This document shows, in pieces, positions 37,791 through 58,483 of a DNA stretch of 64,000 nt. A program made the position numbers and the translations under genes. Location of the stretch: assembly GCA_038363925.1 (NCBI GenBank), contig JAQQWL010000001.1:2046001-2110000 (forward strand), in the 5' to 3' direction. Source of the DNA: Apiospora phragmitis (lineage: Eukaryota; Ascomycota; Sordariomycetes; Amphisphaeriales; Apiosporaceae). A model generated the notes under the pieces. It saw nothing but the letters and a program-made list of their open reading frames with translations. It had not been told where the DNA came from and did no database searches. Position 1 is the stretch's first letter; each line of letters starts with the position of its first letter.

Positions 37791-38258
37791 GTCGATCAGC
37801 GGAAGGGTTTTCTCTTCGTAAAGTTGTTTTGTTATGTGATCGAGAAGTAGAGGCAAAGTCGCGATCGCTTTTGTGAGCTGTTCAGGATAGTAAACTCTGC
37901 AGCTGATCGAATCCAGCCCAGTTTTAAAAGAACGATGGAATTTGAAGGCCTGAGATGTGATACGTGGTATCTAAGTCCTTGGGACACCACACCACTCTCT
38001 CTCCTTTGTCACGCGTCAAAAGTACCAAGGCAGCTGTCCACGTATCTCTGCTGCCAGGCATCCGGCTCCCAAGTCATGAGCAGAATGACAAGCTCCAAGA
38101 AGCATCTCTTCCTCATCAGTTGAAGTGACAACGGGTTCCAGCAGCTTACTCAGGTGTTGCTTACTTTCCACTTGCTCCATGGCAATTCGTAAATACCTTG
38201 GTACCTGAAGGGACAATAACAAAAGGAACACTTTCATGATCCCCTCGTAGATGCCTAA

Positions 38259-41200
38259 TCAAAAAGAAAAACAGACGTCGGTACCAATAACCGTTTCTGG
38301 GGGACTGAATCGCACCAGGCGCCCTCCTTCCATTAGTCCCACCATATCCGCATCCGCTACGGACTCGATTCGATGTGCCACCATGATGATGGTAAAGTCC
38401 TTGAACTCTTCTCTCATCAGGCGCTGCACCTTGGCGTCCGTTTCGGCATCGAGATGACTGGTGGCCTCGTCCAAGAGTAATATCTTGGGTGTCCAATAAC
38501 GTTGAGCTAATGAGACGCTCTGTCCTCCTGACGCATACAGACCGCCGACGACGGGTGGGCACTCTGATTCAGAAGATCTTGCTGCTGCTCTCGCGTTGAA
38601 AATGTCCTTCCTGACTATTGTCCTGGCGAGAGCAAGCAGCTGCATTTGTCCCTGTGACAGCGACTCCTGTGTAATCTGTCCGTCCAGACCACCTCGCGTC
38701 TCAATGATGTCCCAAAGCCCGACAGACCTAAGAGCTGAGGTCATCAAGTTGTCATGTAACTTGTGGTTATCGCCCAGAGATTTGTTGCTACTCGCTGCCG
38801 CCGTGCGGGTGGGATCCATGTTATAGCGAACGGTTCCTTGAAGTATAAGACTCTCTTGGGGTATTGCTAGAATGCGATTTCTGAGAGTTGTACGGGGGGC
38901 CGTGGTAATGGGTTAGGTCATCTATAAATATCTGACCTGCCGCGTTGGAAGTGCCGTGGCCTGCTGAGGGAACAGTGTCCAACAGGCGGAGGAGAGTCGA
39001 CACCAAGGTACTCTTGCTACTGCACAGGGTCAATAACAGGTGGACGATAGCTTGCGCGCATCCATACTTACCTTCCAGTACGACCAATGATACCGATCTT
39101 TTGCTTCCGATCCACGAGGAGAGATAAATCACGCAAGGTCAAATTATCTCCACTAAGACATTATTAGGACAAGAACGGAAGAGAATGGTGTGGGTTGAAG
39201 TCACTTACTCATAGGATGCGGAGATGTTGCGGAACTCGATGCGACCTTCCCTCGGCCAGTCAGCCGGCGGAGACTGCACCTTGTCGTTGGCTTCTTCCGG
39301 GGAAACAAGAGCCTCCAGACTCTTGGTCCTCGCAACCGCTCCCAGAGATGTCTCCATCTGGGTCCAGCTGACTAGCATACTCTGTAGCCCCTGGCTGAAT
39401 GACAAGATGGCTGTCAAAGCAACACCGAGTGAGCCGCGACTTGTCGTCGCACGTAACGACAAGGCTAGCGCAACGAGAATGGTGGCCATGGCCGCGACTG
39501 TCAGATACAAGACCAGGTTCAGCCACCTTTGTATACAGAACATGAGGTAGTATGGCTTCTGCGAATTGTCCAGACACTTCAAGTTCACGTCAATGAAGTG
39601 GGCTTACCACTTAAAGGCCCGGATACTGGCAAGTCCTTCCATCGTCTCGGTAAAGTGCGTGAAAAGCGGGCTCTTGGCCTCGAGATCGAGGAACCTCAGT
39701 TGCCTTGAGGTCCGCAAGTAGAATTTCTGGACCAAGTAGAGGACAGAAATCAGCACTGGGATGCAGATAGCCATATAGCTAGACCCCAAAGTAATGAAGA
39801 TTAGTTGAGCAAGGCATTGGATCAAAGCTGTGAATACATAGTTAACCCCTGAGTTGAGCTGCTCGAGAACGTAACGGACTGGACCCACAGAGAAATGTGC
39901 CAAAAGAGACCGTAGGGAGCACCACGTCCACGAGCGTCATGTCTTGGCTAAATCGATTGAGAATCAAACCAGAATCCGTGGTGGAGAAGAAACGCATCGG
40001 GGCATGCATGACTGTACGCAGGAGGATCTGGTGAAGCACCGCGCCTGATTGCGGCACGATACTGATCATAATTTTCCTGTGATACGGGTTACTACCGTCT
40101 TTCCCTTGGAATAGGCGACTGAGCTAAATACCATATCATCGCGCCTTGACTCAAAGAGACGACAACTACAAGCATGACGTAGACGCCGGTGAAGATCAGA
40201 ACCCGCGGCGCCGGGTCGTCGGTATACCACTGGATCCAGAATCTCGGAAAGTTCGAAACAAAAGTGAAGACGAACAAGATCCCGACGGTGGCCAAAGTTC
40301 TTGCTGGCCCAATGGATCGGTAGTATTACATATAGAGTGATGTGTCTCCGGTGCGTCTCGCTAGATCTTCTAGATCTTCCTGGGTAGCCTCCTGGGTGGC
40401 GTTGTTTGTTTTTCCAGATATAGCTGAAGTCTTCGCGTTACTATCTGGATCTTTTGAGGCACCGGAGCCTTCAGGTAGGATTGATAAGAGACCCAACCGC
40501 GATAAATCGTCGGGACTTTGGGCATGGATCGTTCTGGCGTTAGGGTCAAATACCAGAACATAGTCGGCCATTGATATGTAATGAACTATAGGGGATTAGA
40601 ATATGGCATGTAGAATTATGAAGGGACCGTAGACGAGAGTAAAGCGTACCTGCATGTGTGACCAGAAGCGTTGTACAGTTTGACTTTCGTAATAGCCCCG
40701 TTCCGAAAACAGTCTTTCGGCAATATTTAATGCAGTATCCCGATCCAGGGCGCTCATGACGTCGTCAAGTAACAGCAGCCTTTTATGGGCGTAGACAGCA
40801 CGAGCCAAAGCCTGTGGTGGGTTAGACAGACCTTCAGTGTTCAGGCGACTCGACTCACTAGTCGCTGTCTCTGTCCTGCGCTCAAAACAGATCCTCGAGT
40901 TCCTATCGTTGATAAGTCACCATGAGGTAGTTGCAGGATGTCTTCTTGTAGGTCACAGGCATACAATACGGTATTGTACCAAACTTCGTCGAAGGATTCC
41001 GAGCCGCAGAGCACATTGCGAAAAGGCCCGTTTGGCAGCCATGGGGTCTGCGAGCAATAGGCTATAGAGCTTGTATGTTTTGTGATGGAGCCCCTTTGTG
41101 GGGAAACCTCGCCGAGTATGGCCTTCAACGAAGTGGTTTTCCCACACCTGCTCGGGCCGGTAATGACTGTTAGCTTTGCCTCTGGGATGCTAATATTGGC

Positions 41201-43390
41201 GTTGTTGAGTATCAAGTCGGCCTCCTTTATAGGTCGTAGATCAAGTCCAGTTACGCTGACAAGGCCATATTCGATATCACGAGCTCCCGCGGGCATACTT
41301 GTCATCTTGACCGAGGTATTGGGCGTGGTGGGACTTTGACTCAGGTCATCGTCTTTCATGTTCCTCTTTTGACCAGGCTCGGTACATATTGACCTTAAAC
41401 AGGTCTGTATCCGGTCGAGGCAGCCTTCTGAAACTCTCAAGGCCGGGATTGATGAAAGTAGGTCGACCGTGGGTCCTGTGACTAACGACACTATCGCAAG
41501 TGAGCTAAAGGCCTGAGCAGTCGACAGTGGCTCGCTGTTATCGACCCGAGATCGAATGGCATACGCAGCAAAAGTCACCAAAGGCGCCAGGATATGCGGC
41601 ATGGAAGCTGCCGATTGATTGTCAGTGATACCACAATTTTTGACGGGCAAAGAATTCAGAACCAGACCAGCCATATTAATCCATACGATCATCCATCGAA
41701 ACTGCTTGGACAGGTGCAGCTCTCTGATACGCCCACTCTGCAAGGTCTCCTCGATCGCGTTTGTTAGGCCTGTCATACGAACATTTTTCACATTGCGAAG
41801 CACCAACGATGTTCTCCCGACTCGAGTCTGCAGAGCTTCTAGCCATGGTCCCTGCCTAGGGCCCATATACCGAGCGAGCCAGATCTGCCACACGAAACAG
41901 ACTGCTATCCCGTTAGACAGCTAACCAAAAGATTGAGACAAGGAATAACGTACCCAGCGCGACCAGAATCGGGGAGGCGGGAATAGCGCCCATCTGTCTG
42001 GCAAGAAGCCATACACCAATCGCGATTTCGAGCAGTCGAGCCCACGTCTCATGGACCATCTCCAGACCGGTGACCGTTCGTTCCACATCAGTACTCATCA
42101 GAGTGATGACCTTGGCTTCATCCTGGTCGTCCGCGACAGTTTGCAGAGAGGCGACATATATCAAAGAAACTAGTGCACCGCGTGCTATGGTCAGCGATCG
42201 ATAGAGTAGATATTGATATGCCGCGGTGGAGATCTAGGATATGTCAGAACATCACGATTTTGTGTGCATTCTCGAGGCGAGCCAGCTTACGGCGATGCCT
42301 AGGTAGATCAGAGCTGTAGCTCCAATGAGACCACGACCATCATTTGTTGTCTCCTCGTTCGCCGCCTCTGTGATGAGTCTGATCGCTCGGTCTATCAGAA
42401 ACGGCTGAGCATAGTTGAAGCCTACAAGGCATAGTCTTGGCAGGATCACGATAAGCAGCGGTAGCTGAATAGCGGAGTAAAGCGCGAGAACCAGCGCATG
42501 ACGGCCTCCGGTGGCATCTATGAGGTTTGAGTTGATACACAGTGTAACGGGACGAAGCGTGCCTAAATATGGGAATACGAAGTATGGGTAGCTTACGCAA
42601 GTCCCAAGCACGTAATATTCGTGCTTATGCGGTCGCAGACTTTAGTGAACCATCGATATCGCATAAGGAGTCTAACGTCAGGCCAGTTTTGTAGCCCAGC
42701 ACGAATGTGGGATTCAGCCACCAAAACACCGCTCGGTTGAAGATGCTAGCGAGAATTTCCGGGGGATATAAGTTGTAGGGATCTCTGAGATAGTTGCGCT
42801 TGCTCTTGGCTTCAAGGCATAGAAGAGCCAACTTCAGTAGTACCGCTGCTAAGAGGATTTCCTTGAGGGCATCAAAATGGCCACGTAAGAATAGAGTTCG
42901 GACTTGAACTGCATCGAAAACACACGAAACGAACAGGTAGACAATGAACAGAGACGAGGGCAGCAGGGAGCGATCATGTTCGACGAGCACCGCGGAGGTT
43001 GACAGGGCTCCTAAGGCGATGAGGGAGACAACGGCGTAAGGAACGGCCGTTCTGGCAGAATCATCCGTCTTGGTCCACAGTGCTACAAGTGTGACCTGCA
43101 AGCCAAACAAAAGGACACTGAGAGTCTGTACCAGGTGTCAGCAGGTGCACAATTGGGGCGTCGAACAAGAAGACAGAACTCACAGCTTTCCCAGCATATA
43201 CATGGCTTGGATGTGTTTTGGTCGTTGAACGCAAGATTTTGTACAGACGTAGAGGCAAGAGGAGTAGACAGATTGCTGAAGAGGCGATGGAGAAGATGCT
43301 TTGTTCGAAGACTAACGTAAAGTCGAACGAGCCATGGCAAGAAAGCGCAGGACCGAACGCGTCGTCTGAGCAATTGGAATGGGCGGTCAT
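38259..43390 (-). CDS. ABCC-type multidrug exporter
   Basis: Minus strand, many introns, start at 43390 (MTAHSNCSDDAFGPAL). The N-terminal domain carries the fungal ABCC pattern FGPAL-CHGSFDFTLVFEQSIF with several helices. First nucleotide-binding domain (about 40640-41230): Walker A GPSRCGKTT, signature LSAGQRQRL, Walker B LLLLDDVMSALD with Asp in place of the catalytic Glu, as in other ABCC first domains. Second transmembrane domain about 39205-40295. Second nucleotide-binding domain: Walker A GRTGSSKST split by an intron near 39010-39070, signature LSQGQMQLLALAR, Walker B ILLLDEATSHLD with Glu, and H-loop IIMVAHR. One frame change lies in the G run at 38894-38899. Exact exon ends in the middle part are not worked out. 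Position beside two UstYa genes makes export of the cluster product a reasonable inference. Confidence 0.88.
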
Positions 43391-43875
43391 CTCGTGGAGT
43401 TCGAATTATCATTAGGTGACTTACATCTGGTGGTGAATCAATCGTCGGTCTTTTGCTTAAAAGTCGGCATCATCGCACCGAAGTCGATGGGGTTGACTGC
43501 CACACTAATCAATGGTCCAGGGAAAGAGAAACCGACGCGTCTCTGCTGCTGCTGCCTTACTTGCAGAGCGAGTCGTTCTTGCCATGGTCAACTTCTCCCA
43601 AAAAAGGGTTCCAATACTTCCAAGGGGCAGGGATCAGAATCAACCAACGGCAGGTGAGTTGATGAGCTTGCCAGGTAGGTGATTAATGTGGTATCTTTCA
43701 ATGCTACTGTATATTGCGTATCTTGGCTACTTCAAGCTTTCTTTGCATTGGTACTTCAAAGTCTTGTCTCACCAAGGCCGTCTCGGTGCTCGTCTGCTGC
43801 ATGCAGTCCAATACATCAAAACCAACAAACTTATTGGATATTGCAACCGGCAAGCGTATTACCCCGCTCCCTCTC

Positions 43876-44681
43876 TCACACACAGCTCCAGTCAGCTTGC
43901 GAGAGAACACTCGTCACAGTATCGCCGGGTTGGTGCTCCCAAGATTCCCATGGTTCCTTAGCCGAACCTGTACTTGCATCCCATAAGTGACGTGCGGGCC
44001 GACATTTGTGGACGCTCCCGCTGCCGAGTCCGTCGACGAAGTCGATCGTTTCTCCACTAGGCATGGTAACCGTCTTGGGGGGCTCGAGGGTTTCATCTGC
44101 TGCGCACAATATGCCCTAAAGTTTGTTGGCATCTCTACTACTGAAATGCAATACGACCTCTTCTACCCCAACATCAATGAGGGGGTGGAATTGGGTAGGG
44201 CGGATGGAAGGGGAGTTCGGCTTACCTCGGCTAGATAATCCAGACAATGTACCCAGTGAACCGACCCGAATTCTTGAAACATGAAGTTTTCATGATCCTC
44301 CGGTCGGCGAGATGACCCATGGTGATGATGAGTCTCGCCGCTCAGCAGTGCCCGGAACAACGAAAGGCAGTGCAGCTGATGCCACATCGATACACCCCAC
44401 TTCCGAGCGGGCCCGTCTGCCGTCTGCACCGACACCATGCCACCGTTGGGTATTTCCTCGACCGACTTCCAAAAGTCGTTCATGGTCGAGTTTGGATAGG
44501 TCATCGGCCTAAAGATCTTCGGTATCGTGTGAGCCGGGCCAGCGTCTGGTAATGTCTGCACCGCAAGGACGCCATATCCCAACACGCCTTCCGCGTTCCA
44601 AGGGATCAAGAAAAAGGTGGCTACGCAGAGCACGATTGTGAGCACTATGGCTGTGACCGTGAAGGTCTTATCAAGCGACAT
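43876..44681 (-). CDS. UstYa/DUF3328 family protein (first copy)
   Basis: UstYa-family proteins are membrane-anchored copper-dependent oxidases known to cyclise ribosomal peptides in ustiloxin-type (dikaritin) pathways. Exons 44226-44681 and 43876-44115, with an intron at 44116-44225, give 231 residues and an intact frame. An N-terminal membrane helix (TAIVLTIVLCVATFFLIPW) is followed by the first motif HQLHC (MWHQLHCLSLFRALL) and the second HWVHC (GSVHWVHCLDYL), the pair of HxxHC motifs that defines the family. Exon 2 resumes ILCAADETLEPPK and ends with a His/Cys-containing tail (HKCRPARHLWD). A His-rich insert (HHHHG) lies between the motifs. It shares strand and neighbourhood with the second copy and the exporter, so co-regulation is likely but unproven. 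Confidence 0.88.
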
Positions 44682-45326
44682 CTTTCTGGTCTAAGTGAAG
44701 TGAACAGATGTTTGAGTCGAAGTAAAGGGGGATTGCTTGGCCGGTCACTGCCCCGGTCTCCTAATCTTTCCTACTTCTTATACATACCGAGAGTTATACG
44801 ACTACTGGAACCCATATTGAGTTGATCCTCTTCTTCTAGGTGCATATGCCTCGGCTACACAGTTCCTATGAAAGTACCTTGAGTTTGTCAGGCATAGGGA
44901 ATGGGTGGCGTCGGCCTTCTTCCTTACGACCCTGTTTGAACTGGCTACCAATCGCTGAATCCGTGGCCAATCGACGTGTCAAAGGTTCTCACAAGTCCCC
45001 GGAATGCAACATCATATGCAGTCCATTTGCCTTTTGCAAGCAAGTGTGGAACTGCCGGACCATAGGACACGGTCCGAGTTCACAAGACCGGCTGTGCCGC
45101 TGATGGCGTGTTTAATGTGACCATGTACCATGGGGATTTCAACTGCACTTCGTGGGACTATGGGAGAAGATGTGAATGTATCCGTGTCTGTATTGGTATC
45201 GATCTGCCTGTCTCCGTGTTCGGGATGCACTACAAGCATCCAGGTGAACACATCATATCTGCACCGTCTCACTATTTGGGATGGGAGAGAGTCATACGAG
45301 CATCCCGTATCTGCAGGCACCCTCCT

Positions 45327-46354
45327 TCAGGCAACCTCGCCCCCTTCAAACCGATCTGGGCCCTCGTAAGAAAAGAGCTCCTTGAACTCAGGGGTCATCT
45401 TTCTCGGCTTTTCACCAGGAGGCCGCCTAACAGCGCCGAACTCCTCCAAGTCGACCGAGTTCTCTTCTTGCCACCTCAACAGACGCTCAAAGTCGACGCA
45501 CTTGTGATGGACGTTGAAATCGGGAAATGCGTTCGGCTGCGCATCGGCCCAGAAGTGCAGGTACACGTCCAAGTTGGGCGAACACATGATGTTCTGCAGG
45601 ATGATGTGGACGCAGTGGGAGATATGCGTCTTGTGCAGCTCCGAGGCATTGGCGTGCGTGCCCCAGTTCTGGCCGTAGTAGTGGTCGAAGTAGGCCTCCC
45701 GCCGGACCTGGTCCACGCAGTGGAGGACGTGGAAGATGTCCAGGCGGCCCATGTAGGCGTCCGGGCCGAGGCCGAAGCGCTCGGGGAACTTGGCGAACTG
45801 GTCTGGGTCTTTTCCTAGCTTGACTACGTCTTCGCGCGCGATGGGGATGGGACGCACGTTGGTGATCCTCTCCCAGGCATCATCGACTTCCCGGCTGGGT
45901 GGGTTTCGGAATACGGAGGAAGAATCGGGGCGCAGCAACGTCGCTTCCGTTTGCCTCGTTTCCAGAGGTATGTGAAGCTTATCGAGAATTGGGGCTTTTA
46001 ATTGATCAACGTCTTTGCTCCAAGGCGTGAAACCAGTTTTAACTTACAATATTCAGTCACCTTCCTGAGGTAATGATTATCATCGCCTAGTTTCCCGAAG
46101 TCGATGGACACTGCTGAGATGAACATGACAAGGGATGCCAAGAGAATTGTAGCGTTAATGAACAGATACTATCTCATTCTCCGCAATTGAGCGGTATTGG
46201 CCAACTCATTATTCTGTTTCTCAGTGAAAAGCAATCCAGCTCGGTCGTGTGACGAAGAGGGATCATCAATGTATACGTCGTCCTCTACCTCCGTTTCAGG
46301 GACTCGGTCCAATCCATGCAAGAGTATACAAACGCGATGGGAAATGCTGAACAT
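45327..46354 (-). CDS. UstYa/DUF3328 family protein (second copy) with in-frame TAG
   Basis: Exon 2 (45327-45994) contains both family motifs, HVLHC (IFHVLHCVDQVRREAY) and HISHC (HKTHISHCVHIILQ), and the usual downstream HKCVDFERLLRW. An intron at 45995-46047 joins it in frame (VTEY|SPILDKLHIP). Exon 1 codes a soluble lead from about 46354 and a membrane helix (NATILLASLVMFISAVSI). A TAG at 46169-46171 interrupts the same frame right before that helix. It is either a true nonsense mutation, a base error, or the end of an intron whose donor I could not place. The catalytic part is complete, and a start downstream of the TAG (Met in the helix) would lose the anchor. Likely partner of the first copy in modifying the precursor coded 1.3 kb away. 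Confidence 0.82.
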
Positions 46355-47500
46355 ATTGAAGTTCGTAATAGTCTAAGTGATGGCTAATACCAAAGACGTG
46401 AAAGTTCCAGACATGGCCAAAGTCAGAACCAGCTAGCTAGTCTTGATACAAGGTCAACTTTTAATATTGAACTCCGTATTCGGGCATGATGCGAAAGGAT
46501 CTCCCGAATCTTCCTTCGGAACACAACTCAGTTTGTGCCTTCGTAACCTGCATATACCAAGCCCCGGGACAATCCAACAGACGCCAGTATTGACACCCAT
46601 ATGATAGCTATGTTACATTTCCCATGTTGAAGGGAAACTAATGACAGCAAATGTCAATAGTCCTGTATTGCTGGGTTCCCCTCTCATACATCACACTTGT
46701 CCCGCAGAGAGTCTCTCTTATCAGTGGAACATGACCAGTACTGTCAGTCTTACTTGATATTGATGCATGCATTCTTGATGTTCATTTCTCCCGCATTGGA
46801 TTATTAAGGCTCCCTTTCTCGTATATGCAGCTACTCTCATAATGTGAAGGATCGACCCGTCAAGTTACTTGGCGGCCATCTGAACCGATGCAGTTTGCTA
46901 CTCATATCATATGAGGGATGTAACACGCGCTCGTGACGAAGCGTAACAGTAGAGGGCAAGGCTGGACAGGACTTGTCTACGCTGTTTCAAGCACACAAAA
47001 TCCACGTGGCCTGTGGGTTGACGTTATGGAGTTCGTATCTGGAAAGACTAAGGGCTTGCATCCCCTTTGCCATCAGAGTCCCTCGTACTATACTTTATAC
47101 AGCCTATATTGTACAGTTCCGTAATAGCCGCCCTGCCCAAGTTCGAGGGAAGTCGCATTCGGGATCTGTACAGGCTCTTTTCCAACCTCTGGGGATTGGC
47201 TCGTGACGTTCTCCCCCAGATGCAAGGTCTTATTAGGGATATCTTAAGGTCGTCCCTCGGCAGCAGCGGTAACCCTCCAAGGAGTGGGATCATCACGGCG
47301 ATCCTCAAGTCTGTCACTGTTGTCGTCAGCAATGGGCGATAAGAACAATGTAACGATCCCCGCTTCAATCATATCTTGGAGGGTCGTTTCGATGTACGCG
47401 GATGAATAAAGCATTGGCAGCATGAATCACAATCGACGCATGGAGATGACTGGAGCCGGCATATGCTGCTGAGGAATTGTCTCCTGGCTGCTGAGGCTTT
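46355..47500. other. Divergent promoter region of UstYa copy 2 and the precursor gene
   Basis: No gene is recognised. The short open frames here have no motif. The stretch separates two divergently oriented cluster genes and is the natural place for shared regulation; I see no site I can name. Confidence 0.45.
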
Positions 47501-47502
47501 AC

Positions 47503-47508
47503 TATAAA
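47503..47508 (+). promoter_or_regulatory. TATA-like box of the precursor gene
   Basis: A tataaa string in ctttactataaagacc lies 107 bp upstream of the precursor ATG, a usual distance when the 5' UTR is short. Support is positional only. Confidence 0.35.
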
Positions 47509-47614
47509 GACCTAGGAAAGGGGTAATTAATAGTACTCATCGACAACATTTCCAGATTATCTTCAGCTTAACCTCTTCCTTTCGGCCCAGCTCTCCTCTC
47601 GCCATTCAGATACC

Positions 47615-47899
47615 ATGCAACTTCCCAAGATCTTGAACCTGAGCGCTCTGTGCCTCCCAGCCGTCTTCAGTGCCCCTGTAGAAGGTAGGACAGCCACTCC
47701 ATCACTCCAACCACGTCTGCTGATTGAAACTTTAGTCCCTGGCAAGGATATTGATCAGAAGCGTGGTACCAACGGTTTGTACAATTACATCGTCGTTGAC
47801 GCCGCGGAGTTGGCCAAGCCCGAGGAGAAGAGCGGCGTCAATGACTTATACAGCAACATCGCCGCCGATGCGGCCGGGTCCACAACACCGTCTGAGTAG
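47615..47899 (+). CDS. Candidate precursor peptide of a UstYa-dependent RiPP
   Basis: A 94-residue intact frame. Residues 1-23 form a signal peptide (basic start, hydrophobic ILNLSALCLPAVF, cleavage after a small residue near 20-24). A spacer follows, then a Lys-Arg pair at 49-50, the cleavage site for a KEX2-type protease. Behind it are two imperfect copies of one motif, 23 residues apart: G-T/V-N-G/D-L-Y-x-x-I-x-x-D-A-A, with YNYI in the first and YSNI in the second. Signal peptide, dibasic site and repeated Tyr-containing cores are the known design of precursors for ustiloxin, phomopsin and asperipin. The two UstYa genes lie 1.3-3.7 kb away on the other strand. Only two copies are present, and only one clear dibasic site, fewer than usual. 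No homologue is recognised; the function is inferred from design and neighbours. Confidence 0.65.
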   Translation: MQLPKILNLSALCLPAVFSAPVEGRTATPSLQPRLLIETLVPGKDIDQKRGTNGLYNYIVVDAAELAKPEEKSGVNDLYSNIAADAAGSTTPSE

Positions 47900-48269
47900 G
47901 CTGTGTGGGATATTAAGTTGATGTCTTGATTGTGACGGCTACACCCAAATAAGATTCAGGTAGGACATACGGGTGTATGAGTGCCGCTATGGAAAACGGG
48001 ACTGCACTGGAATTATATCAGACTTGTTCTCGTTTTCTCCAATTGGATGGAATAGGGTAACTGAGACCTAGTACAGGGTGTTCCCAATCAGTCAGATTGC
48101 CTATGAAATATGGTCAGATGTCGTTAAGTTAAGCAATGATTATTATCCACATGCCAAGTACATCACTTCATGGGGCTGCGACGAAAGTAAGTATGTGATT
48201 TACGATGGCAAGATGGTAGGGCACCGATGTTGATGGTGTGCTGAGGCTCTGTAGTCTGGCGGCTAAGCC

Positions 48270-48343
48270 ACTAAAAGTCAGGCCTTGTTGCACTAAAAGT
48301 CAGGCCTTGTTGCACTAAAAGTCAGGCCTTGTTGCACTAAAAG
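48270..48343 (+). repeat. 22-nt tandem repeat, 3.4 copies
   Basis: Perfect direct copies of actaaaagtcaggccttgtt plus gc, without spacer. The perfect identity points to recent amplification. It lies between the precursor gene and the Tc1/mariner element. Confidence 0.95.
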
Positions 48344-48585
48344 AGAGGAAACTAAACCTCCACAGGCACTGGTATTTCAACTAATGACCTAACTGCGGCG
48401 CTCTTATTTCACTACAGTATTTCCAAGTATGAAAAGGATAGTGTTTAAATGAGAAGACAGACTCCTTTAATAGAACTGGTACATAACCGTTTTCATTGAT
48501 TCACTTATTCACAACCCCTACGCTTTGAGGTAAGCCCTACGCTACGATAATCGTTCTATCTAGTAACCGGTATAGGATATACCTA

Positions 48586-48619
48586 AAGTGACCGTCCAAA
48601 AGTCTGCGCAAGGACCACC
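48586..48619 (+). repeat. Left terminal inverted repeat of the Tc1/mariner element
   Basis: Contains gtccaaaagtctgcgcaagg followed by accac; preceded by TA. Confidence 0.85.
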
Positions 48620-48692
48620 CTCATCAAAACTCACATTCCACCACCCTTTTACCCCTTCTAACTTCATCTTTAAATAACTCTATCAATTCAAC

Positions 48693-49707
48693 ATGGATTT
48701 GAGCGAAATTGGTCGCATTCTAGCCGCAGAGCGTAAGCCTGATGGGGAATACACATCCGAGGCTGTCGCGGCCATTACGGCGCTGGCTGCTGTCGGGGTC
48801 AAAAAAGAAGGCCATTGCCGACGCGTTCCGAACGCGTCGGCCTGCCACCATCAGCAATCTCATAAAGCGCTTCATTCAACGAAAGTCACCTAAAATAAAG
48901 CCAAGACCTAGTCGCCCTCATAAATTATCGACTCGGTAAAAGCGCTATCTATCTTAATTGGTGCGTAGAAAGCCCCGTGCCACTTGGAGAGAGCTTTGTT
49001 TAGACATCAATGTTATGCTAGGCCCCAAACGACGCTCCTTCTCGATCAACACGGCAAGGCGCGCTCTACGCAAAAGGAAGATCGGCCATTGGCGCGCTGC
49101 GAAGCGCATCCTCTTGACGAAGGAGGACGCCAAAGAGCGGCTCGAATTCTGTCGTTATTGGTCCTCTCGTGCGCGCCTTAGGCGGCTGATGCTTTCCCTT
49201 TTCTCGGACGAATGTACGATCCAGAACGAACCCTTCACACCAGGTCGCTGGGTCTTCCGGTACGGTTCAGAACGCTACCGGAAGGATCTCATCACCCTAC
49301 GTCTCACGGACGGCCTCGAATCAGCCTTATGGTGTGGGCTATGGTGTGGCAAAGGGAAGGGGAGGCAGGAACCTCCCCTTTGATTTTCTGCAAGGGAGAT
49401 CCGGACTCTCCCGCCGGCGGCTTTACTTCTGCCAGGTATATTGAGGTCTTAGAGGCTGCTCTCCTTCCCTTTTATAAGCCTGGAGACCCTTTCATGCAGG
49501 ACAACGCGCGTATACATCGATCTAATACCGTCAAAGAGTTCTTGGAATCGAGGGGGCATCTGGACGATCAAGTGGCCGGCACATTCACCTGATCTGAACC
49601 CTATTGAACAGGTCTGGAAGGCTCTAAAGGCTAAAATCTATGAAATTGAGCCTTCCTTTCAAGACCTGAAAAATAACATGCCACACCAAGTCTATCGAGA
49701 GAGGTAG
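48693..49707 (+). pseudogene. Tc1/mariner transposase, broken
   Basis: N-terminal DNA-binding part starts MDLSEIGRILAAERK and continues in another frame as KKAIADAFRTRRPATISNLI; the change lies in the A run near 48803. The middle part has WRELCLDINVMLG and RRSFSINTARRALRKRKIGH, then a DDE core: FSDECTIQNEPF for the first Asp, MQDNARIHRSNTVKEFL for the second, and HSPDLNPIEQVWKALKAKI for the final acidic residue. There are at least three frame changes and a stop between the DNA-binding part and the core, so no active protein is expected. The family is certain; the subfamily is not. Confidence 0.85.
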
Positions 49708-49932
49708 TCCAGTCGGCGTGGGCAGCCTTAGATCCAGGCCTTATTTATAGACTCTTGCGTTCTCTCCCTCGTCGCCTTTCTGCTATACGTCGCGCTAGGG
49801 GCTGGTATAGTCATTATTAAAATTCATTAAATTAGCCACGTAATAATATAAACTTTTATTGAATTCTCTATTAATTTGGGTGTGTTATTAATATTTAAAC
49901 GTAGGTGGTGTTAGAGGGGGGAATCGGCTGAA

Positions 49933-49968
49933 AGTGGCCCTTGCGCAGACTTTTGGACACTGATTTTT
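49933..49968 (-). repeat. Right terminal inverted repeat of the Tc1/mariner element
   Basis: On the minus strand it reads aatcagtgtccaaaagtctg then cgcaagggccact; followed on the plus strand by TA. Confidence 0.85.
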
Positions 49969-50256
49969 TAGCAGGGAGCTGAAAACTTACCCATAACACG
50001 TAACCTAGTAGTGACTGTATACTTGCTTCCAGCCTCTGGGCCCATTTCCATCGAATAGGCGATGAGGGCTAACCTAGACTGCTTCCAGCTCCAACCAATA
50101 ACGTGAGAGAGGCGTCACTAGCCGGGGTTCACATTAGTGAGTCAACTCACAGCCAAGTTGACATGTCATGTATAAGGCGCTCTCCAATCCCATCGCGGTA
50201 CAATCGTCGTCCCTTGCTCAGATATATCAATTTGACAGGCGACCCAAATCGCCATC

Positions 50257-51286
50257 ATGCAGTTGCCCTTTGTGACTTTGGACGTCTTCACCAGCACGCG
50301 GTTCGAGGGCAACCCCCTCGCCGTGATCTCGGTCCCCGCATCGCGCAAAACGGAGCTCACCCAGGCCAAGAAGCAGAAGATCGCGCAGGAGTTCAACCTT
50401 TCGGAGACGGTCTTTATGCACGAGCCTTCTTCCTCCCCCTCTTCAAATGATGATGATGATGACCAGAAGAAGGAGAAGGAGGGGGCAACACACCTTCAGA
50501 TCGACATCTTCACCATCGAGTCCGAGCTGCCCTTCGCCGGCCACCCCACCATCGGCAGCGCCGTCGTGGCCAAGTTCCACTGGTACCCCGCCGTAGACAC
50601 CCTGCTGACCAAGTCCGGTCCCATTCATATCGCAGAATCCCCGCCGTCGGGTCAGGGTCGGTCCATGCGCGCCCGCATCTCCCACGATGTGCGTCTGCAC
50701 CAGAAGACGCTGGCGGACGTCATCCCGGCCGCCCAGCACGCCTCGTTCCCGGGTCTGTCGCACCGCCTCCCCGCGGTCCGCGACGCCGAGCTGCGCGCCC
50801 CCGTCTTCAGCATCGTCCGGGGCATGACCTTCGCGCTTGTGCAGCTGCCGTCGCTCGAGCTCCTCGGCCGCCTCGACCGGGGGCTCCGGCTCGACTTCGA
50901 CCACCTGCCCGGCCCGTCGCTGTTAGACGAGGACCGTCAGCCGGCCGGGTTCGTCGCTCGGTACTACTACGTCGACCAAGGGGAAAGAAGAAGAAGAAGA
51001 CGGTGATGTGAATGTGCGCAAGATTCGCACGCGTATGCTCGAGCTGGGCTTCGAGGACCCTGCGACCGGCAGCGCCGCGAGCGCGCTCGCGGCCTACCTG
51101 ACTGGGGCGGATAGGGCGGAGCACGTTCGGTTCGAGATCACGCAGGGCGTGGAGATGGGGCGCCGGAGCGTCATTCAGGTGGAGACCAAGGCCGAGGTGC
51201 AACAGGGAGGAGATATGAAGATTCGGGAGCTCTGGCTTGGTGGCGAGGCGGTCGTGGTACAGTATGGGACGTTGGTGGTCGACTAG
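50257..51286 (+). CDS. PhzF-family epimerase/isomerase-like protein
   Basis: PhzF-fold proteins catalyse isomerisation using a conserved Glu; fungal members are mostly of unknown substrate. The start MQLPFVTLDVFTSTRFEGNP is the family start; NLSETVFM holds the catalytic Glu; ELPFAGHPTIGSA is the conserved substrate-binding motif; FEDPATGSAASALAAYL is the second-half signature. Full length is about 340 residues. Two acidic low-complexity inserts are unusual: an Asp run with DQKKEKEG near residue 70, and a Glu run coded by a (GAA)n microsatellite at about 50983-51003. The reading frame changes at the second insert, in the GGGGAAAG or (AGA) run, so length error there is likely. It may belong to the neighbouring peptide cluster, but PhzF is not a standard dikaritin gene. 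Confidence 0.85.
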
Positions 51287-51610
51287 ATTTAAGTAGAGGT
51301 GATGCATGCATTGGGGGGCGCGAGGGACAGAAATTGCTAAAGAGGATCACTTTAATTTTCTCCCACGGCGACTTCCTGAAATATATTCTCGCCCTGATGC
51401 ATTACCCCTGAACCGTGATAATTTCCCCTATTTCCCTTTTTTTTATCTAGTACAGATTTCCTCGTCTTTTCGTTTGTAGCTCGGCTAGAGCTATATACCC
51501 TCCGTCCCTACCCGTCGTTCCTAGACGCTGACACGAATCGGACACTGCATGGCTGAGCTCGCCCCGGCTGGCCAGGGTTTAAAGCTTCAAGAGGCTCTAT
51601 GAGCGAAAGA
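51287..51610. other. Intergenic stretch between converging genes
   Basis: Shared 3' region of the PhzF gene and the P450-like gene. Nothing recognised. Confidence 0.5.
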
Positions 51611-53167
51611 TCAAACCGTGCAAAGATCTAGTAATTGCTCGTCAGTGAAATGGCGTGACAGCCAAAGGATGTTCTCTTGACATACCATAACAAGTATCTT
51701 GCCGAGCACCATCTCCGCGGCAGTCCTTGCCGGGTAATAATCATTCGTGCTGCCCGTGTCTCCCCACATGATACTGAGAGCACTCTCCATCGTAAGACGT
51801 AAGTTCCTGTCGTCGTTGGCTTCTAGCCACCGCTCGGGCCGGAAGGCCTCGGCATCGTCGCCCCAGTACTTCTTTGCCCGCATGATACCGAAGGAGTCTG
51901 GCCCGACTTCGGTACCTCCCGGGATCTGGAAGCCCAGGATGGTATCGACCGTCTTCGGGGACTTCCTGAAGACTGGCGGTGCTGTAATAACAGCATCAGA
52001 CATACGGCATCCCTCTTTTACCACGGCTTGGAGATATGGTAGTAATTTCAGTGGCGGCAGGGCGCTGGGGATATGAGCTGCTGCGGGGAATCGGCTTCCC
52101 GAAATGATGCCCCATCCGATCTCTGCTTTCAGCTTGTTGTAAGCGGTAGGGCTTGACAAGAGATGAAGGATGATCGTCGTCAGGGCATCGGCCGTCAGAT
52201 GGGCCCAGCGTCGTCTTTTGGCTTGGTCAACAATTATCCCCGAACGCGCAAAAGCCGACGACTAGCTAGCGGCAGCGAACGACTGACTCACAACTCATCA
52301 GGTACCCTCTTTATTTCCTCTTCGTCTACATTACAGACTGATGTCCTGTTATATTCTTTAGTATTGCACCAGAGTCTGGGTCAAGAACGAAGCACACCCA
52401 ATTTACTTACTTCAAGTGATGTGCCAAATCGTCATACTCATTCCGGGGGCGGGAGCCCTCCATGTCGGAGCCAAAATGACGACGGCATGTACGCATCATC
52501 CGAACAGGAAGTAACGCTGCAACCAGCCTTGAGTAACATTGAGGTCTCGTTCTCGGCATGTTACACCGGCCCTGACCTTCCTCGAGCGAAGCGCAAGGTT
52601 CACCATACATAAGATCCCTGAGGATATTGGACACAAGCCATCGGCTGGCCGATGTCATCTCCAACGGCCTGTAGGAGGCCACTTTGGTCGGAATGCACTC
52701 GCCTTCTACCAAGCGGATGAGACGGCCACACTGCCTGTCCACTGTTGCCTTGAGATGCGAGTCTCTCTTGTAGCCACATGGGTTCTTCCCGTCAGGGCGG
52801 AAGAAGGGGTAGAGGCCCTGGCTTGGACATGATGATGACGATGCAGGACCTCCAGAGTAGCCAGAGCTTGGGGTGTTGATTCTCAGAAGGCTTTCGATGT
52901 CCGATGTGACAAGCTGGTCAGGGCCGACACGGATAAGGCCCCCTTGCACGAGGGAGGAGTTAGCCTTGGGTTGGGAATCATGGGGATGGACCCCACCCTA
53001 CCGTACTGATCCGATAGCCTCCTCAGATCCAGGGGCCGGAGGTAGTAGCTCCAGCGAAAGGAAGCCCAGAAGGGCCCGGGGATGTGGCATAGTCGATGCC
53101 ACCGGTAGGCGAACTGGGCGAGGCAGCAGAGGAGCATCAACAATGGCACAAGAAGTATAAAATCCAT
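51611..53167 (-). pseudogene. Cytochrome P450-like gene lacking a recognisable heme cysteine
   Basis: Start at 53167 with an ER anchor (MDFILLVPLLMLLCCLAQFA) and proline hinge (HIPGPFWASFRWSYYLRPLD). An intron at 52943-53001 leads to GGLIRVGPDQLVTSDIESLL. Then come DRQCGRLIRLVEGECIPTKV and YRPLEMTSASRWLVSNILRD, and after further breaks LPYLQAVVKEGCRM with the ExxR motif, FGIMRAKKYWGDDAEAFRPE with the PERW motif. Where the heme loop should follow, the sequence reads WGDTGSTNDYYPARTAAEMV: the usual C-x-G-R position has Tyr-Pro-Ala-Arg, with no Cys. Several frame breaks occur between about 52160 and 52860. The gene is probably dead; P450s are common partners in dikaritin clusters, so it may once have acted in this one. 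Confidence 0.7.
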
Positions 53168-55181
53168 GATGGTCCTCGAGGATTGGGGGTTTGCCGGCTG
53201 AGCGGGCACATGGATCCAGTGAATGTGCTTGCGCAAGGTTTTATCAAGATCGAGCCATAAGGTCGGAGGGATCCTTGACTATTACTAGCCATTCTGTAGA
53301 GCTGGTAATATCAACAATACCGGACTCTCTCATGTGCCCTCTCTCAAGCCAGCCGAGTAGGTAAAGCCGTGCCAGGCTAGGCCCGAGCAGTACTTTGTGG
53401 CGGCTGCAAGGGAGTCCTGCATCCCTGGCATCTAATCCCAAGAGGCGTCAAGCCCTGTCCAACCACAATGTTCGGCCAAAGACACGCCATAGTTGAAAAC
53501 AGTAGGCCAAGCATATGATTAGGGCTCGGATTGTAAAGCCTAGGCATATAGACCATTCTTGGTTGGCCGTTTGGCTCTTCCATCTCGAAATGCAGTTGCC
53601 TCAAAGCGAGCGTGTCCCGAGTCCTGCCGGCACCCGGACCGCTTACTGCCTATAAGACAGGAGCATGTGTGTGCCCTATTGGAGATAAGGCGTGGGGGCG
53701 GTCTACACGATCTTGCCTTGTATCACGTTCCACGACATCGTGAATCACACAGTTCCGTCCCCCCGATTGGCAAAGCTAAGGGTGCGCTGCTACTCTGTTT
53801 CCGCATACCAGGGAGAGCAAGTATTCATTCAGATGACGCGCGGCACGAATTGACCGACCGTCTGGGACATCCCCGGTGCAAATCAAACCTGGTGATACAA
53901 TTGGCCTCGTTATGCCACTACCCGTCTCCATCGGCGTACTGCTTTCTTTCCGACGTGACGTGACGTGACCTACCTAGTGGACGGGGCAAGTTCCGGCGTG
54001 AAACAAGATTCATCGTTGCTCTCTGTCCTGCAGGAAGACCAATATCGGCGTGCATGTTCAGTGTCTGCCAGGTATAGCCTCAACACTGGAAATGGGGCGT
54101 ATGTCTCGGGAAGCCGCAGTCCTTCAACCTCGTCTTCGAGATGCCATTGTTCAGGTCCAACGCCGAGTTCCAAGCCACCGAGAACAGTAATCAATACTGC
54201 AGGATCTGTAAGTAGGTGAAATCCCAGTTGATCGGTTTGCCCAGATCTCCGACGCAGCCGCCTCCCGGAGTGGTTGTAGTATCTGCAGGCCAGTCCTGCG
54301 CATGCACATTGCGAGCCATGCTTGCACGTGCGAACGATTGGAGAAGACCTCTCCCACCACGTGTTCATGAAGCCAGGGGGATAAAACCATCGCGACGCTC
54401 ATGGCTCCTGTGTAGGCACCCGGCCACTTTGCTTGGAGCATGTTGCTAGGCCACACACTACTTTGATCCAAACAAAGCTCGGATAGTAGGTATAAGTTCC
54501 GGTGGAGACAATACGAAGATCACCGACGAAGTAGGTAAAAAGGAACTATTCAAATCCAACCCCGAAACTTAGAGCAGGTGGATCAGACAGGCTTGTGGTG
54601 GAATGTGTCCTCGGGACATTGACTGACAAGACACCGGAACTAACGAAGTCAACGGATGTGGCCGCAACTCGGAAACTGGCCAAGAGGTTGTGGATGCGCA
54701 TCCGGCGGCAGTGCGCACTTCATTGCGGCACAGCAACCCACTACTTGGCGAACCAATTTTGTTGAACCACACGACGTGTCGTACGTCAAGGCCAGTCAAA
54801 GGGGGCACCGGCGACTGTGCCGTAGAGAACCCCCGTTGATCGCCTGATGCGCCGCTGAGGATTGGGCAAAAGCCTCATCGTGATCGGCAAGAACGGGAGG
54901 AGCTTCACGAGAAGAGTCCTACACTAGTTGATAGATACCCCAGCTGAAAGGGGCTGGAGGTTTTGGGCTCGGTCGTGGCCGCCTGGTCTCCCAGGAGGCA
55001 CCGCCTCGCTGATGATCAGCTGTCCGTCTTGTCAGGGTATGAATAAATGCTTCTACTTGCCGGCCTACATACTTATAAGGGGCTTCCATTCCCTCTGGTA
55101 GACGACTCACCCTTTCCCACTGACAATCCACACGGACAACCACCTGAACATACCTATCTGCCTTCGTAGTTCGCCGCAAAG
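53168..55181. other. About 2 kb without a supported gene
   Basis: Open frames at 53377-53604 and 53970-54471 on the minus strand carry no motif I can name and lie in overlapping frames; they could be a decayed gene. gacgtgacgtgacgtgac at 53953-53970 is a small 5-nt tandem repeat. Confidence 0.4.
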
Positions 55182-55975
55182 ATGCGCGTTTCTAACCCAA
55201 CCTCGAGATACCTCACCGCGCTGGCGGTCACCGGCTTCCTAGCCCGCACCGCCTCGGCCGTCTGCACCAACTGGACGCAGGACGGCACCGTGATCTACCG
55301 GCCCGGCCACAACACCATCATGTTCCAGCAAACCCTGGACCGCATCGAGTGCCCTGGGACGCCCAGAAGGACTGTACCCTCCCGGCCCGGGCCTACGACG
55401 TCAGCGTGGAGCCGCAGATCTGGGTCGAGAACCACGCGATCAGCCTCCCCCAGGAGGAGTCGGACGCCGTCCTCGCGCTAGCGTCGGCGGGCTTCTTCCG
55501 CGCGCGCCCCGGGCTCGCGTACGGCAACACGGGCGCCGCCCCGACGAACGACGAGGCCAACGTGCGCCTCGACGACAACGAATTCACGCCGCTCCGCTTC
55601 CACGTCGACACGGCCGACGCCCGCGAGGACCAGGAGGGCGCGGCCCGGCTGTCGCGGGACCTGTTCTCGGCCGCGCCCGGCGCCAACCACACGTTCAATT
55701 TCGCGCCCGACATGGTCGGCTCCAAGGGGACGCTGGGCCGGTGCAGCAACGAGTCGCTGGATGGGCTGCAGGTCTGGGTGTATGCGCCCTACACGCGGCG
55801 GGATTCGAGCCGGTACCACGCGAATCGCACGTACGTGTCGGGTACATTCGGCTGGCGCGAGACCGCTTTGAAGAACGACACGAGTGGTGCGGGATCTCTT
55901 ATCGCGGGAAACAGGGGTCTCAGTGCGTGGGCAAGTCTGGCGACGACGATAGCGGTGGTGCTGGCTTTTGCATGA
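55182..55975 (+). CDS. Secreted, probably GPI-anchored protein of unknown function
   Basis: A signal peptide (SRYLTALAVTGFLARTASAV) is followed by a domain with Cys pairs (VCTNWT, RIEC, KDC, GRCSNES), several N-glycosylation sites (NWT, NHT, NES, NRT, NDT) and a C-terminal hydrophobic tail (AWASLATTIAVVLAFA) behind a small-residue stretch, the pattern of a GPI signal. One C too few at 55352-55354 breaks the frame between IEC and WDAQKDCTLPARAYDV; when allowed for, the frame is open to the end with no intron. Family not recognised; role at the cell wall is inferred. Confidence 0.75.
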
Positions 55976-56230
55976 GGAGATGCCTGTCTATAGCGAAGTG
56001 TAGGATAATGGATTAATACCAGATCATCGTTTCCGTGGCAGCATTCATTTTTGTTAATACTGTTATTGCCAGTTTTAAAGATATCAACAGAAACTGGATG
56101 ACGAGAATCAACCACGTCTTTTTCATACTGCACTGAGTAAAAAGTAGACAATCAAATACGAGCGACGAATTGGGAGATACCAACGACGAGTGTGCTCCGA
56201 GAATATAGGCACGCGTGACTTGTCGACGAA

Positions 56231-57632
56231 CTATTGCAGCATGTCCACGGCGGAGCCTCTGGAACGGACTTGGAGTCTGAAAAGCCTCTGCTTCGCACAT
56301 AGAAACATCTCGCCCTGTTTCCCGAAGCAGAAGTTCGAGCAGCCTCCCGTTGCCGCAATGAGCCCCAGGGGCACGCCACCAGGGCTCCAGATCTCGATGC
56401 CGTCTCCGCATGCCGCATATACATTTCCCATATCGTCGCATTGCACTGCGGCTGGAGCCCCTTCCATAGCAAATGCAAAGACACGCTTGTTTGCGAGGAA
56501 TGGTTGGCCGCCACGGATCAAGATATCAAAGGCATAAATCGTAGCTGGTCTTTTCACGTTTGTATTAGTGCCTGGCCGTTGGTCGAGTATCATCCCAGAA
56601 AGACTTACTGAATGGAAGCGATATCACCGCTGTCTCTTTGCGCCCCCGCGTCTGTGATGTAGAGCATCTCCTCGTCCGGGCTGAAACACAACCCCGTCGG
56701 TGCCCCGAAGCCGTCGGCCATCACACGGAGACCACCAACCAGCTCGGGGTCGTACCGGTACACGTGGCTCGGTAGCTGGGGCGGGGGCCGGATCTCCTTG
56801 GCAAACCCCAGGGGCGGGTCCGTGAACCAGATAGAACCATCGCTGGCTACAGTAGCCTGCTGGGGCGAGTTGAGCGGCCGGCTACCGAACGAAGTGACGA
56901 CTGGCCAAGGGGCTTTGCCATGCGGCACTATCCATTGCAGCGTCAGTAATGGTGTTTCGATCAAGAAGGCTTCCAGTTCTGAAATTATTATGGTTATTCC
57001 GCAATTCCAACAAGAGCAGGTCTTACTGTAGTACAGCCCTCCTGTTTCGGGTTTCAGTGTGCCCTGCGAGCAGTACAGGAGGCCTTTAGCGTAGGCACAT
57101 GCACCGGCCGGCATGACCATGTTGGGTGGCGGACGGAGCTTCGACCACTCGACCGCCACGATACGGTCATCATCGTCAGCTCGCTGTACGCGGATCTTGG
57201 ATATCAGCACTACGGGAAGCTGCGAGCTGCTTGTGGTCTGTAGCAGGTCTGACGTGACCCAGAGCTCTTCAAGCTTTCCGAGCTCTGCGTTTTCCGGAAG
57301 GTGGACGCATGCATTGTGAAAGAAGGGACTGCGGGATGTGGGCGCCGAAGTAAGAAGAAGAGTACTTCGCACCGGCTCTCTCAATGATGGATTCAAGGCC
57401 CGTGTGGTACTGCTTGATGGTCACGGCGTCCGGGTCAATGGCAGTCGGGGGCTGTCTTGTGTATAATATGGTCATCAGTGGAAAATAGCCAACAGCGAGC
57501 CAAAGTGCATACTTGTTTCTCAAATCAACGACCTGTGATTGGCTAATTAGCCTTCTGGTTCTGTCAGCTGGACCTGCCGATTCCTACCTCAAAGTCTGCT
57601 ACAGTAGGTTCAGGCTGTATGACGGCAGTCAT
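56231..57632 (-). CDS. SMP-30/gluconolactonase-like beta-propeller protein
   Basis: Minus strand, start at 57632 (MTAVIQPEPTVADFE); two small exons then lead through VVDLRNK to PPTAIDPDAVTIKQYHTG. The core shows the six-bladed propeller pattern of this family: FFHNACVHLPENAELGKLEE, ELWVTSDLLQTTSSSQLP, QATVASDGSIWFTDPPLGF, YRYDPELVGGLRVMADGFG followed by PTGLCFSPDEEMLYITDAG (the strand with metal-binding Asp), and after an intron near 56540-56605 FAMEGAPAAVQCDDMGNVYA and GDGIEIWSPGGVPLG. A frame change near 57330 (YSSSYFG to PTSRSPFF) and the mid-protein segment SKTCSCWNCGITIIIS (possibly an unremoved intron) are irregular. Members hydrolyse sugar lactones or similar esters; the substrate is unknown here. 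Confidence 0.82.
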
Positions 57633-58483
57633 CGTGAGTGAATCTCTGGGACACCTACTAATGGTGAGCTAGGACATGTATGCATTTGCACGCATGTTGG
57701 GCAAGTTCTTGACCCTGTCACTGCAATACTCGCCTAGCAACGTCCTACCTATGTTACCTCCTTACATGCATGTCGCTACCCCGCCTAAAGATGCCTCAGC
57801 GGACCTCATTTAACATCGATTGCATGTACAAAAATTGGTAACTTGTCGCCTTTTTTCCTTGCCTCCGACCACATATACCCAGCCGTGATAGTCGAGGCTC
57901 ACCTTGGGTTTTCCACAGCTCTCGGCAATCTTCGGCTGAAGAGGGAACCACGCATGCATCCCCTTAACGGCGAAAGCGCTGCTCTCACTAGATTCCGCCG
58001 TGCTCTACGGATCAGGGATAATTTAATGCCATTGGCACGAACTACAGGCACGTGAACAACTACTTACCCAACATGAAAAGATCCAACCGCAAGCGGAATG
58101 ACGTTCCGCTCGTGCTGAGATCTATCAGGACTTGGCCAAATTGTCAGCATTTCCTAAAGTCCGGAAAACTGCGTCCCCTGGTCTAGGCAGCCTAGTTTAA
58201 GCTTAGCAGCGCACCTGCCCCCAGATTCAGGGAATTGGATCTTCCCCATATTTTCTGTCCTGTATCGCCCAAAACCGAAAGTCGATGATAACCGTCCGCA
58301 TTGCCGAATCCCGCCCCTCTTGTCCTTTTTATTTCTGTCGCCCATCACCATCGCCGTTGACGTAGAGAGCCCCGGCATGACCTATTCTTACTAGGGCAAC
58401 TACAAAGTCTTCCCACCCGATCCTTCCTTTTTCTACCGACAGAGAAACCCCCGGTCGATCTATGGTGCTCGCAGTCTAGAGGC
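57633..58483. other. Divergent promoter region
   Basis: Lies between the lactonase-like gene (minus) and the carrier gene (plus). No gene is seen. Confidence 0.5.

What the first reader, a model, noticed from the sequence alone, without database searches (positions are those of the whole stretch)
38259..53167. A candidate UstYa-dependent RiPP (dikaritin-type) gene cluster
Seen: two proteins with paired HxxHC motifs, a 94-residue secreted precursor-like protein with a Lys-Arg site and repeated Tyr/Ile motifs, an ABCC exporter and a P450-like gene within 15 kb. Known: this set of functions makes ustiloxin, phomopsin and asperipin type cyclic peptides. Inferred: the locus makes, or made, a new cyclic peptide based on YNYI/YSNI cores. 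The core differs from the published ones I know.
Basis: partly seen in the sequence, partly recalled or inferred. Interest (0 to 1): 0.88.

Follow-up and report, generated by a model that had tools for sequence, protein, structure and literature searches.

The report
Decayed, duplicated fungal cyclic-peptide gene cluster
A fungus carries two copies of a small gene set of the kind that turns a tiny secreted protein into a cyclic peptide, but both copies look broken, so the locus is probably the remains of such a pathway and points to a simple kind of precursor that repeat-based searches would miss.

Summary
The window lies in the genome of Apiospora phragmitis: its UstYa B is identical to NCBI protein PG994_000623. 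Two UstYa (PF11807) genes and a 94-aa secreted-type ORF with two imperfect repeats are real; 0 of 2000 shuffles reach the repeat score. The strongest new evidence is in the same genome. A second, colinear copy of ABC transporter + UstYa B + UstYa A + precursor lies on contig 6, at 73% DNA identity. That copy defines the cluster as about 38.26-48.2 kb; P450 and PhzF have no match there. Both copies look disabled. In the window, UstYa A has an in-frame stop and the transporter a stop and a frameshift. The contig-6 copy has many stops, a broken precursor and a GC-to-AT excess compatible with RIP. Differences concentrate at third codon positions in most gene pieces, so both copies were probably functional for long before decay. 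A third UstYa pair has its own two-repeat, one-KR precursor with Trp-rich cores. Such precursors fall below the published three-repeat KEP threshold. Best reading: a remnant dikaritin-like RiPP cluster, a new member of a known kind; no product was shown.

The parts
38259..43412 (-). ABCC-type transporter gene, broken: in-frame TAA at 39606 and a 1-nt frameshift near 38.9 kb in the second nucleotide-binding domain; 5' end and several exon borders uncertain
   Evidence: ABC_tran and ABC_membrane matches; ABCC relatives in the PDB; lesions compared with the contig-6 copy
43876..44681 (-). UstYa B, intact, 231 aa, two exons (44681-44226 and 44115-43876; intron 44225-44116), motifs HQLHC and HWVHC
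   Evidence: PF11807; spliced model identical to NCBI PG994_000623, Apiospora phragmitis
45327..46354 (-). UstYa A, two exons (46354-46048 and 45994-45327), motifs HVLHC and HISHC; exon 1 carries an in-frame TAG at 46171-46169, just before the membrane-anchor stretch
   Evidence: PF11807 E 2.8e-51; 23 relatives listed; stop and frame; splice sites
46355..47614 (.). shared divergent upstream region of UstYa A (-) and the precursor (+)
   Evidence: gene positions; partly conserved in the contig-6 copy
47615..47899 (+). precursor-like gene, intact 94-aa ORF: hydrophobic N-terminus, one KR site, two imperfect repeats with LYNYI and LYSNI
   Evidence: repeat test; scan; decayed homologue on contig 6 beside the UstYa genes
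48585..49967 (.). Tc1/mariner-type element with 39-nt terminal inverted repeats (82% complementary) and transposase sequence in several frames; lies just outside the duplicated unit
   Evidence: HTH_Tnp_Tc3_2 match; inverted repeat 48585-48623 / 49929-49967
50257..51286 (+). PhzC/PhzF-family gene, outside the unit (only 50257-51003 was scanned)
   Evidence: PF02567; no match in the 20 kb fetched around the contig-6 copy
51611..53236 (-). cytochrome P450 remnant without a recognisable heme-Cys motif, outside the unit
   Evidence: PF00067 match to profile positions 278-393 of 462 only; frames; no match at the contig-6 copy

Best explanation
The locus is the remains of a compact UstYa-dependent (dikaritin-like) RiPP gene cluster: a secreted precursor with two imperfect repeats, two UstYa-family oxidases and an ABCC transporter. 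Inferred working when intact: the precursor enters the ER; the two membrane-anchored UstYa proteins oxidatively cross-link aromatic side chains in the Tyr/Ile repeats; Kex2 cuts at Lys-Arg and further peptidases trim the rest; the transporter exports or sequesters the peptide. The unit existed twice. Both copies diverged for long under selection for protein function, and then both were disabled, the contig-6 copy with a RIP-like mutation bias. Shown: gene content, the two copies, the repeats, the codon-position bias, the lesions in this assembly. Inferred: chemistry, processing, product, and that the lesions are real rather than assembly errors.
For: UstYa A and B by profile. Precursor homologue (E 1.8e-12, 46% identity) and UstYa A homologue (70% identity) on contig 6, 1.6 kb between the two matches. 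Colinear match of 38256-48188 and no other match of the window to those 20 kb (blastn; tblastx of the rest of the window, 0 hits). 9595 aligned columns at 72.8% identity. Third-position excess: UstYa A exon 2, 89 of 222 against 68 of 444, P 5e-12; UstYa B exon 1, 47 of 147 against 49 of 294, P 4e-4; an ABC piece, 37 of 112 against 24 of 224, P 2e-6; precursor repeats, P 0.014. Window lesions: 1 stop in UstYa A exon 1, 1 stop and 1 frameshift in ABC. Contig-6 lesions: 4 stops in UstYa A exon 2, 1 in UstYa B exon 1, 10 in one ABC exon; precursor with leader stop, frameshift and deletion. GC-to-AT against AT-to-GC differences 1105 against 610, highest rate in CA context. A third UstYa pair has a precursor of the same build.
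Against: No transcript, peptide or mass data. UstYa proteins also act in non-RiPP pathways (PMC12048977, passages). Only one dibasic site is present, and the second repeat lacks one. UstYa B and the precursor ORF are intact in the window, a little surprising for a long-dead cluster. UstYa A exon 1 shows almost no third-position excess (26, 19 and 28 of 103). If the assembly is long-read only, the frameshift, less likely the stops, could be an error; I found no record of how this genome was sequenced. There is no outgroup DNA, so the RIP signal cannot be polarised; it is confined mainly to ABC and UstYa A and is absent in the precursor (23 against 24) and in two of the three intergenic parts (35 against 48, 113 against 109; the third 69 against 46).
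Confidence: 0.7

Rival explanations
1. The cluster is alive: the stop and frameshift are assembly or strain errors, or are bypassed (for example by a private intron), and the fungus makes a cyclic peptide from the YNYI/YSNI repeats now.
For: Precursor and UstYa B frames are intact; UstYa A has a single stop in its two exons; the transporter may be dispensable (inference).
Against: Three separate lesions in two genes of the unit, two of them stop codons; the neighbouring P450 also looks degenerate.
Confidence: 0.17
2. The UstYa pair and transporter belonged to a non-RiPP pathway, and the 94-aa protein is a linear secreted peptide precursor (pheromone- or effector-like) that happens to lie beside it.
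For: UstYa proteins occur in polyketide and non-ribosomal peptide clusters (PMC12048977, passages); 6120 of 7878 published KEPs have no DUF3328 gene nearby (PMC7329392, passages).
Against: Precursor and UstYa genes are linked in both copies; a different two-repeat precursor sits at a third UstYa pair; no NRPS or PKS domain among the 45 of 240 open stretches of the window scanned with Pfam (count of stretches).
Confidence: 0.1
3. The 94-aa ORF is a chance frame and there is no precursor here.
For: No Pfam family and no relative in the protein collection; no source name for it in that collection.
Against: Repeat score above all 2000 shuffles; third-position bias in the repeat part; homologue beside UstYa genes on another contig.
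Confidence: 0.03

Closest known systems
Dikaritins (ustiloxin, phomopsin, asperipin-2a), DUF3328/UstYa-dependent fungal RiPPs
   Same: Secreted precursor with Tyr-containing repeats and a Kex2-type site beside UstYa proteins with two HxxHC motifs, and a transporter.
   Different: Two imperfect repeats with one KR, not many KR-flanked cores; no tyrosinase, methyltransferase or peptidase in the duplicated unit among the stretches scanned; both copies disabled.
KEPs (Kex2-processed repeat proteins)
   Same: Signal-like N-terminus, tandem repeats, dibasic site; 22% of KEP genes lie near DUF3328 genes (PMC7329392, passages read).
   Different: The published definition needs at least 3 repeats of at least 8 aa between dibasic sites; this precursor has 2 repeats and 1 dibasic site.
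DUF3328 clusters of lichen fungi without a repeated precursor (PMC12048977, passages read)
   Same: UstYa-type signature genes with two HxxHC motifs and no high-copy repeat precursor nearby.
   Different: Here a two-repeat precursor is identifiable and a homologue of it lies in the second copy of the cluster.

Membership tests
UstYa (PF11807) family | profile match above the curated cut-off and two HxxHC motifs | tested here: met
   UstYa A 174.9 bits and UstYa B 39.7 bits against a cut-off of 25; His and Cys of both motifs invariant in 6 aligned sequences
Dikaritin BGC (five-gene definition of Ding et al. as quoted in PMC12048977) | precursor with N-terminal leader and repeated core motifs | tested here: met
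   two repeats, 0 of 2000 shuffles; signal peptide judged by hydrophobicity only, no signal predictor was available
Dikaritin BGC (five-gene definition of Ding et al. as quoted in PMC12048977) | multiple DUF3328 proteins | tested here: met
   two genes, one of them with an in-frame stop
Dikaritin BGC (five-gene definition of Ding et al. as quoted in PMC12048977) | transporter or peptidase | tested here: met
   ABCC-type transporter sequence, broken
Dikaritin BGC (five-gene definition of Ding et al. as quoted in PMC12048977) | tyrosinase | tested here: inconclusive
   none among 45 of 240 open stretches of the window scanned with Pfam; the rest were not scanned
Dikaritin BGC (five-gene definition of Ding et al. 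as quoted in PMC12048977) | methyltransferase | tested here: inconclusive
   among the stretches scanned only an LCM-type methyltransferase at 21.1-21.8 kb, about 16 kb outside the unit
KEP (PMC7329392 section 13) | at least 3 tandem repeats of at least 8 aa between KR/KK/RK/RR sites | tested here: not met
   2 repeats, 1 dibasic site
Dikaritin (chemical class) | UstYa-dependent cross-linked cyclic peptide product | not testable with these tools
   no peptide or expression data

The most novel reading that the evidence does not exclude
Low-repeat precursors (two imperfect repeats, one dibasic site) beside UstYa pairs form an overlooked set of fungal RiPPs that repeat-based mining cannot see. 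This genome would hold two unrelated kinds, one with Tyr/Ile cores (here) and one with Trp-rich cores (WRWSTW / WAWTKW, contig 6:239162-239404), the latter suggesting UstYa-made Trp cross-links; the Tyr type would be a cluster lost twice in one genome.
Probability: 0.3. Interest if true: 0.6.

Novelty: new member of a known kind. Interest (0 to 1): 0.42.

Why it matters
The second copy gives an in-genome test that separates the cluster (transporter, two UstYa genes, precursor) from bystanders such as the P450, which a single locus cannot do. It also suggests that fungal RiPP precursors with only two repeats exist and are missed by the three-repeat rule used in one large survey. It gives a candidate example of a RiPP cluster that was duplicated, kept for long and then lost.

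Tried and rejected
Considered and rejected: that the P450 and PhzF genes belong to the cluster (no match to them in the 20 kb fetched around the contig-6 copy, by blastn and tblastx; the tblastx list was cut when printed, so one search was run for this). That an intron removes the UstYa A stop: the aligned contig-6 frame is open across it, and the 40 residues after it align with the anchor of P0008 (E 2.7e-5), P0009 and P0010 (P0006 and P0007 weakly, E 0.19 and 0.48; P0005 and P0017 over 7 residues only; P0020 not at all); a private new intron is not formally excluded. That the two precursors of the genome are homologous (no local alignment).

Rows dropped: UstYa A exon 1 was counted in a wrong frame and was recounted; two ABC stretches (40122-39846, 42639-42258) were in no clear frame and are not used. 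In the first, looser scan (8 ORFs listed) the top score was a 282-aa Ser-rich protein at 24044-24892 (-), low complexity and longer than the 200-aa limit, so it is not in the 36.
Full report
Source. The window is contig 1:2046001-2110000 of a 52.67-Mb genome in 19 contigs. UstYa B, spliced from the window, is identical over 231 aa to PG994_000623 of Apiospora phragmitis, and the contig length given with that protein, 2,906,023, is that of contig 1. The host is thus this sordariomycete (taxonomy).

What is there. On the minus strand lie an ABCC-type transporter (38.26-43.4 kb), UstYa B (44681-43876) and UstYa A (46354-45327); on the plus strand, across a 1.26-kb divergent gap, lies a 94-aa ORF (47615-47899). 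UstYa A and B match PF11807 with 174.9 and 39.7 bits against a cut-off of 25, and both HxxHC motifs are present. The ORF has a hydrophobic N-terminus, one KR and two repeats: DQKRGTNGLYNYIVVDAAELAKPEE and EEKSGVNDLYSNIAADAAGSTTPSE align with 11 identities at an offset of 23, and 0 of 2000 shuffles reach that score.

A second copy. In the same genome the precursor finds one other region, contig 6:564140-564400 (E 1.8e-12, 46% identity; a shorter match inside it is listed too), and UstYa A finds contig 6:565984-566697 (70% identity; the next best of 9 matches is 42% over part of the protein). DNA comparison of the window with 20 kb of contig 6 gives colinear matches for window 38256-48188 and nothing beyond (blastn); tblastx of window 1-38200 (in two pieces) and 48300-64000 gives 0 hits at E 0.001. 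Over 9595 aligned columns identity is 72.8%. The unit is therefore transporter, UstYa B, UstYa A and precursor. The P450 and PhzF genes have no counterpart in those 20 kb. A Tc1/mariner-type element with 39-nt terminal inverted repeats (48585-49967) separates them from the unit.

Constraint. Between the copies, differences are concentrated at third codon positions (positions 1, 2, 3): UstYa A exon 2, 44, 24 and 89 of 222; UstYa B exon 1, 27, 22 and 47 of 147; ABC 41920-40856, 74 of 355, 76 of 354 and 129 of 355; ABC 39543-39208, 18, 6 and 37 of 112; NBD2, 28 of 181, 29 of 182 and 73 of 182; ABC 39933-39544, 26, 22 and 41 of 130. UstYa A exon 1 shows little bias (26, 19 and 28 of 103). In the precursor the repeat part shows 8 of 41, 6 of 41 and 16 of 42, the middle of the leader 8 of 28, 8 of 27 and 9 of 28, and the signal part 3, 2 and 4 of 20 (Fisher P 0.014 for the repeats and 0.80 for the middle). 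The repeats behave as a selected coding sequence and the middle of the leader does not. This agrees with core and leader roles but rests on few sites. It also suggests that both copies worked for long after they separated.

Decay. In the window copy UstYa A has an in-frame TAG at 46171-46169, where the contig-6 frame is open; the piece after it still aligns with the membrane anchor of Aspergillus relatives. The ABC gene has an in-frame TAA at 39606 and a 1-nt frameshift in NBD2. UstYa B and the precursor are intact. The contig-6 copy has 4 stops in UstYa A exon 2, 1 in UstYa B exon 1 and 10 in one ABC exon, and a precursor with a leader stop, a frameshift and a 14-base deletion. Transitions from GC in the window to AT in contig 6 outnumber the reverse 1105 to 610; CA dinucleotides are lost most often (27.6%, against 17.6-21.9% for CC, CT and CG), whereas in the other direction the four rates are alike (12.7-15.2%). 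The bias is strong in ABC (631 against 258) and UstYa A (158 against 61), weaker in UstYa B (58 against 39) and one intergenic part (69 against 46), and absent in the precursor (23 against 24), the two other intergenic parts (35 against 48, 113 against 109) and the downstream part (18 against 25). RIP is a fair but unproven reading, as no outgroup DNA was available.

Other UstYa places. The genome gives 31 UstYa matches, a lower bound, which I grouped into 19 places. All 19 were scanned, with 64 kb here and 10-20 kb at the others (259 kb). Of 36 ORFs of 50-200 aa with a hydrophobic N-terminus and a dibasic site, 2 pass the repeat test at 1 or fewer of 200 shuffles, where about 0.4 would be expected by chance (the expectation is my arithmetic). 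One is the precursor above. The other is an 80-aa ORF at contig 6:239162-239404 (minus), about 1 kb from a UstYa pair, one member of which is 42% identical to part of UstYa A. Its repeats hold EPRWRWSTWADA and AKRWAWTKWEDA; 2 of 2000 shuffles reach its score. It has one dibasic site, no relative elsewhere in this genome at E 0.1, and its wider distribution was not searched. The second UstYa gene of that pair seems to end before its second HxxHC, so that cluster may also be damaged. The scan sees single-exon ORFs only and would miss spliced precursors.

Relatives. UstYa A has 23 listed relatives among 274 candidates: three unnamed proteins at 84, 68 and 68%, Aspergillus proteins at 47-58%, and others down to 30%. 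UstYa B has two besides itself, at 55 and 39%. The precursor has none. That search needs exact five-residue words and limits length, so absence is weak evidence. Neither UstYa A nor the precursor of this genome appeared there under an NCBI name.

How it works. By the established role of UstYa proteins in ustiloxin, asperipin-2a and phomopsin (PMC7329392, passages), the pair would cross-link aromatic residues of the repeats and Kex2 would cut at KR. The second repeat has no dibasic site, so either both repeats stay in one peptide or another protease acts. This part is inference.

Comparison. It meets the UstYa-protein, precursor and transporter features of a dikaritin cluster as quoted in PMC12048977. 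Tyrosinase and methyltransferase remain inconclusive. It fails the KEP definition (at least 3 repeats; PMC7329392 section 13). It is best filed as a dikaritin-like remnant, a new member of a known kind.

Noticed in passing
L014:4162-4404 (contig 6:239162-239404, minus): An 80-aa secreted-type ORF with two Trp-rich repeats (WRWSTW, WAWTKW) and one KR beside a UstYa pair: a second, unrelated precursor candidate.
   Followed up: partly
L014:7577-8314 (contig 6:242577-243314): A UstYa gene whose frame seems to end before its second HxxHC motif, in the same cluster as the Trp-core precursor.
   Followed up: partly
window 48585-49967: Tc1/mariner-type element with 39-nt terminal inverted repeats and transposase sequence in several frames, between the unit and the PhzF/P450 genes; a tandem repeat of 22-bp period lies just upstream at 48269-48348.
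   Followed up: partly
window 51611-53236 (-): P450 remnant without a recognisable heme-Cys motif; its decay suggests that loss extends beyond the unit.
   Followed up: partly
window 41.1-41.2 kb and contig-6 counterpart: The first Walker A motif of the ABC gene departs from the usual pattern (recalled) in both copies, at different residues.
   Followed up: no
window 46501-47614: The main part of the divergent region between UstYa A and the precursor keeps 64% identity with the contig-6 copy over 1006 aligned columns; it could hold shared regulatory sites.
   Followed up: no
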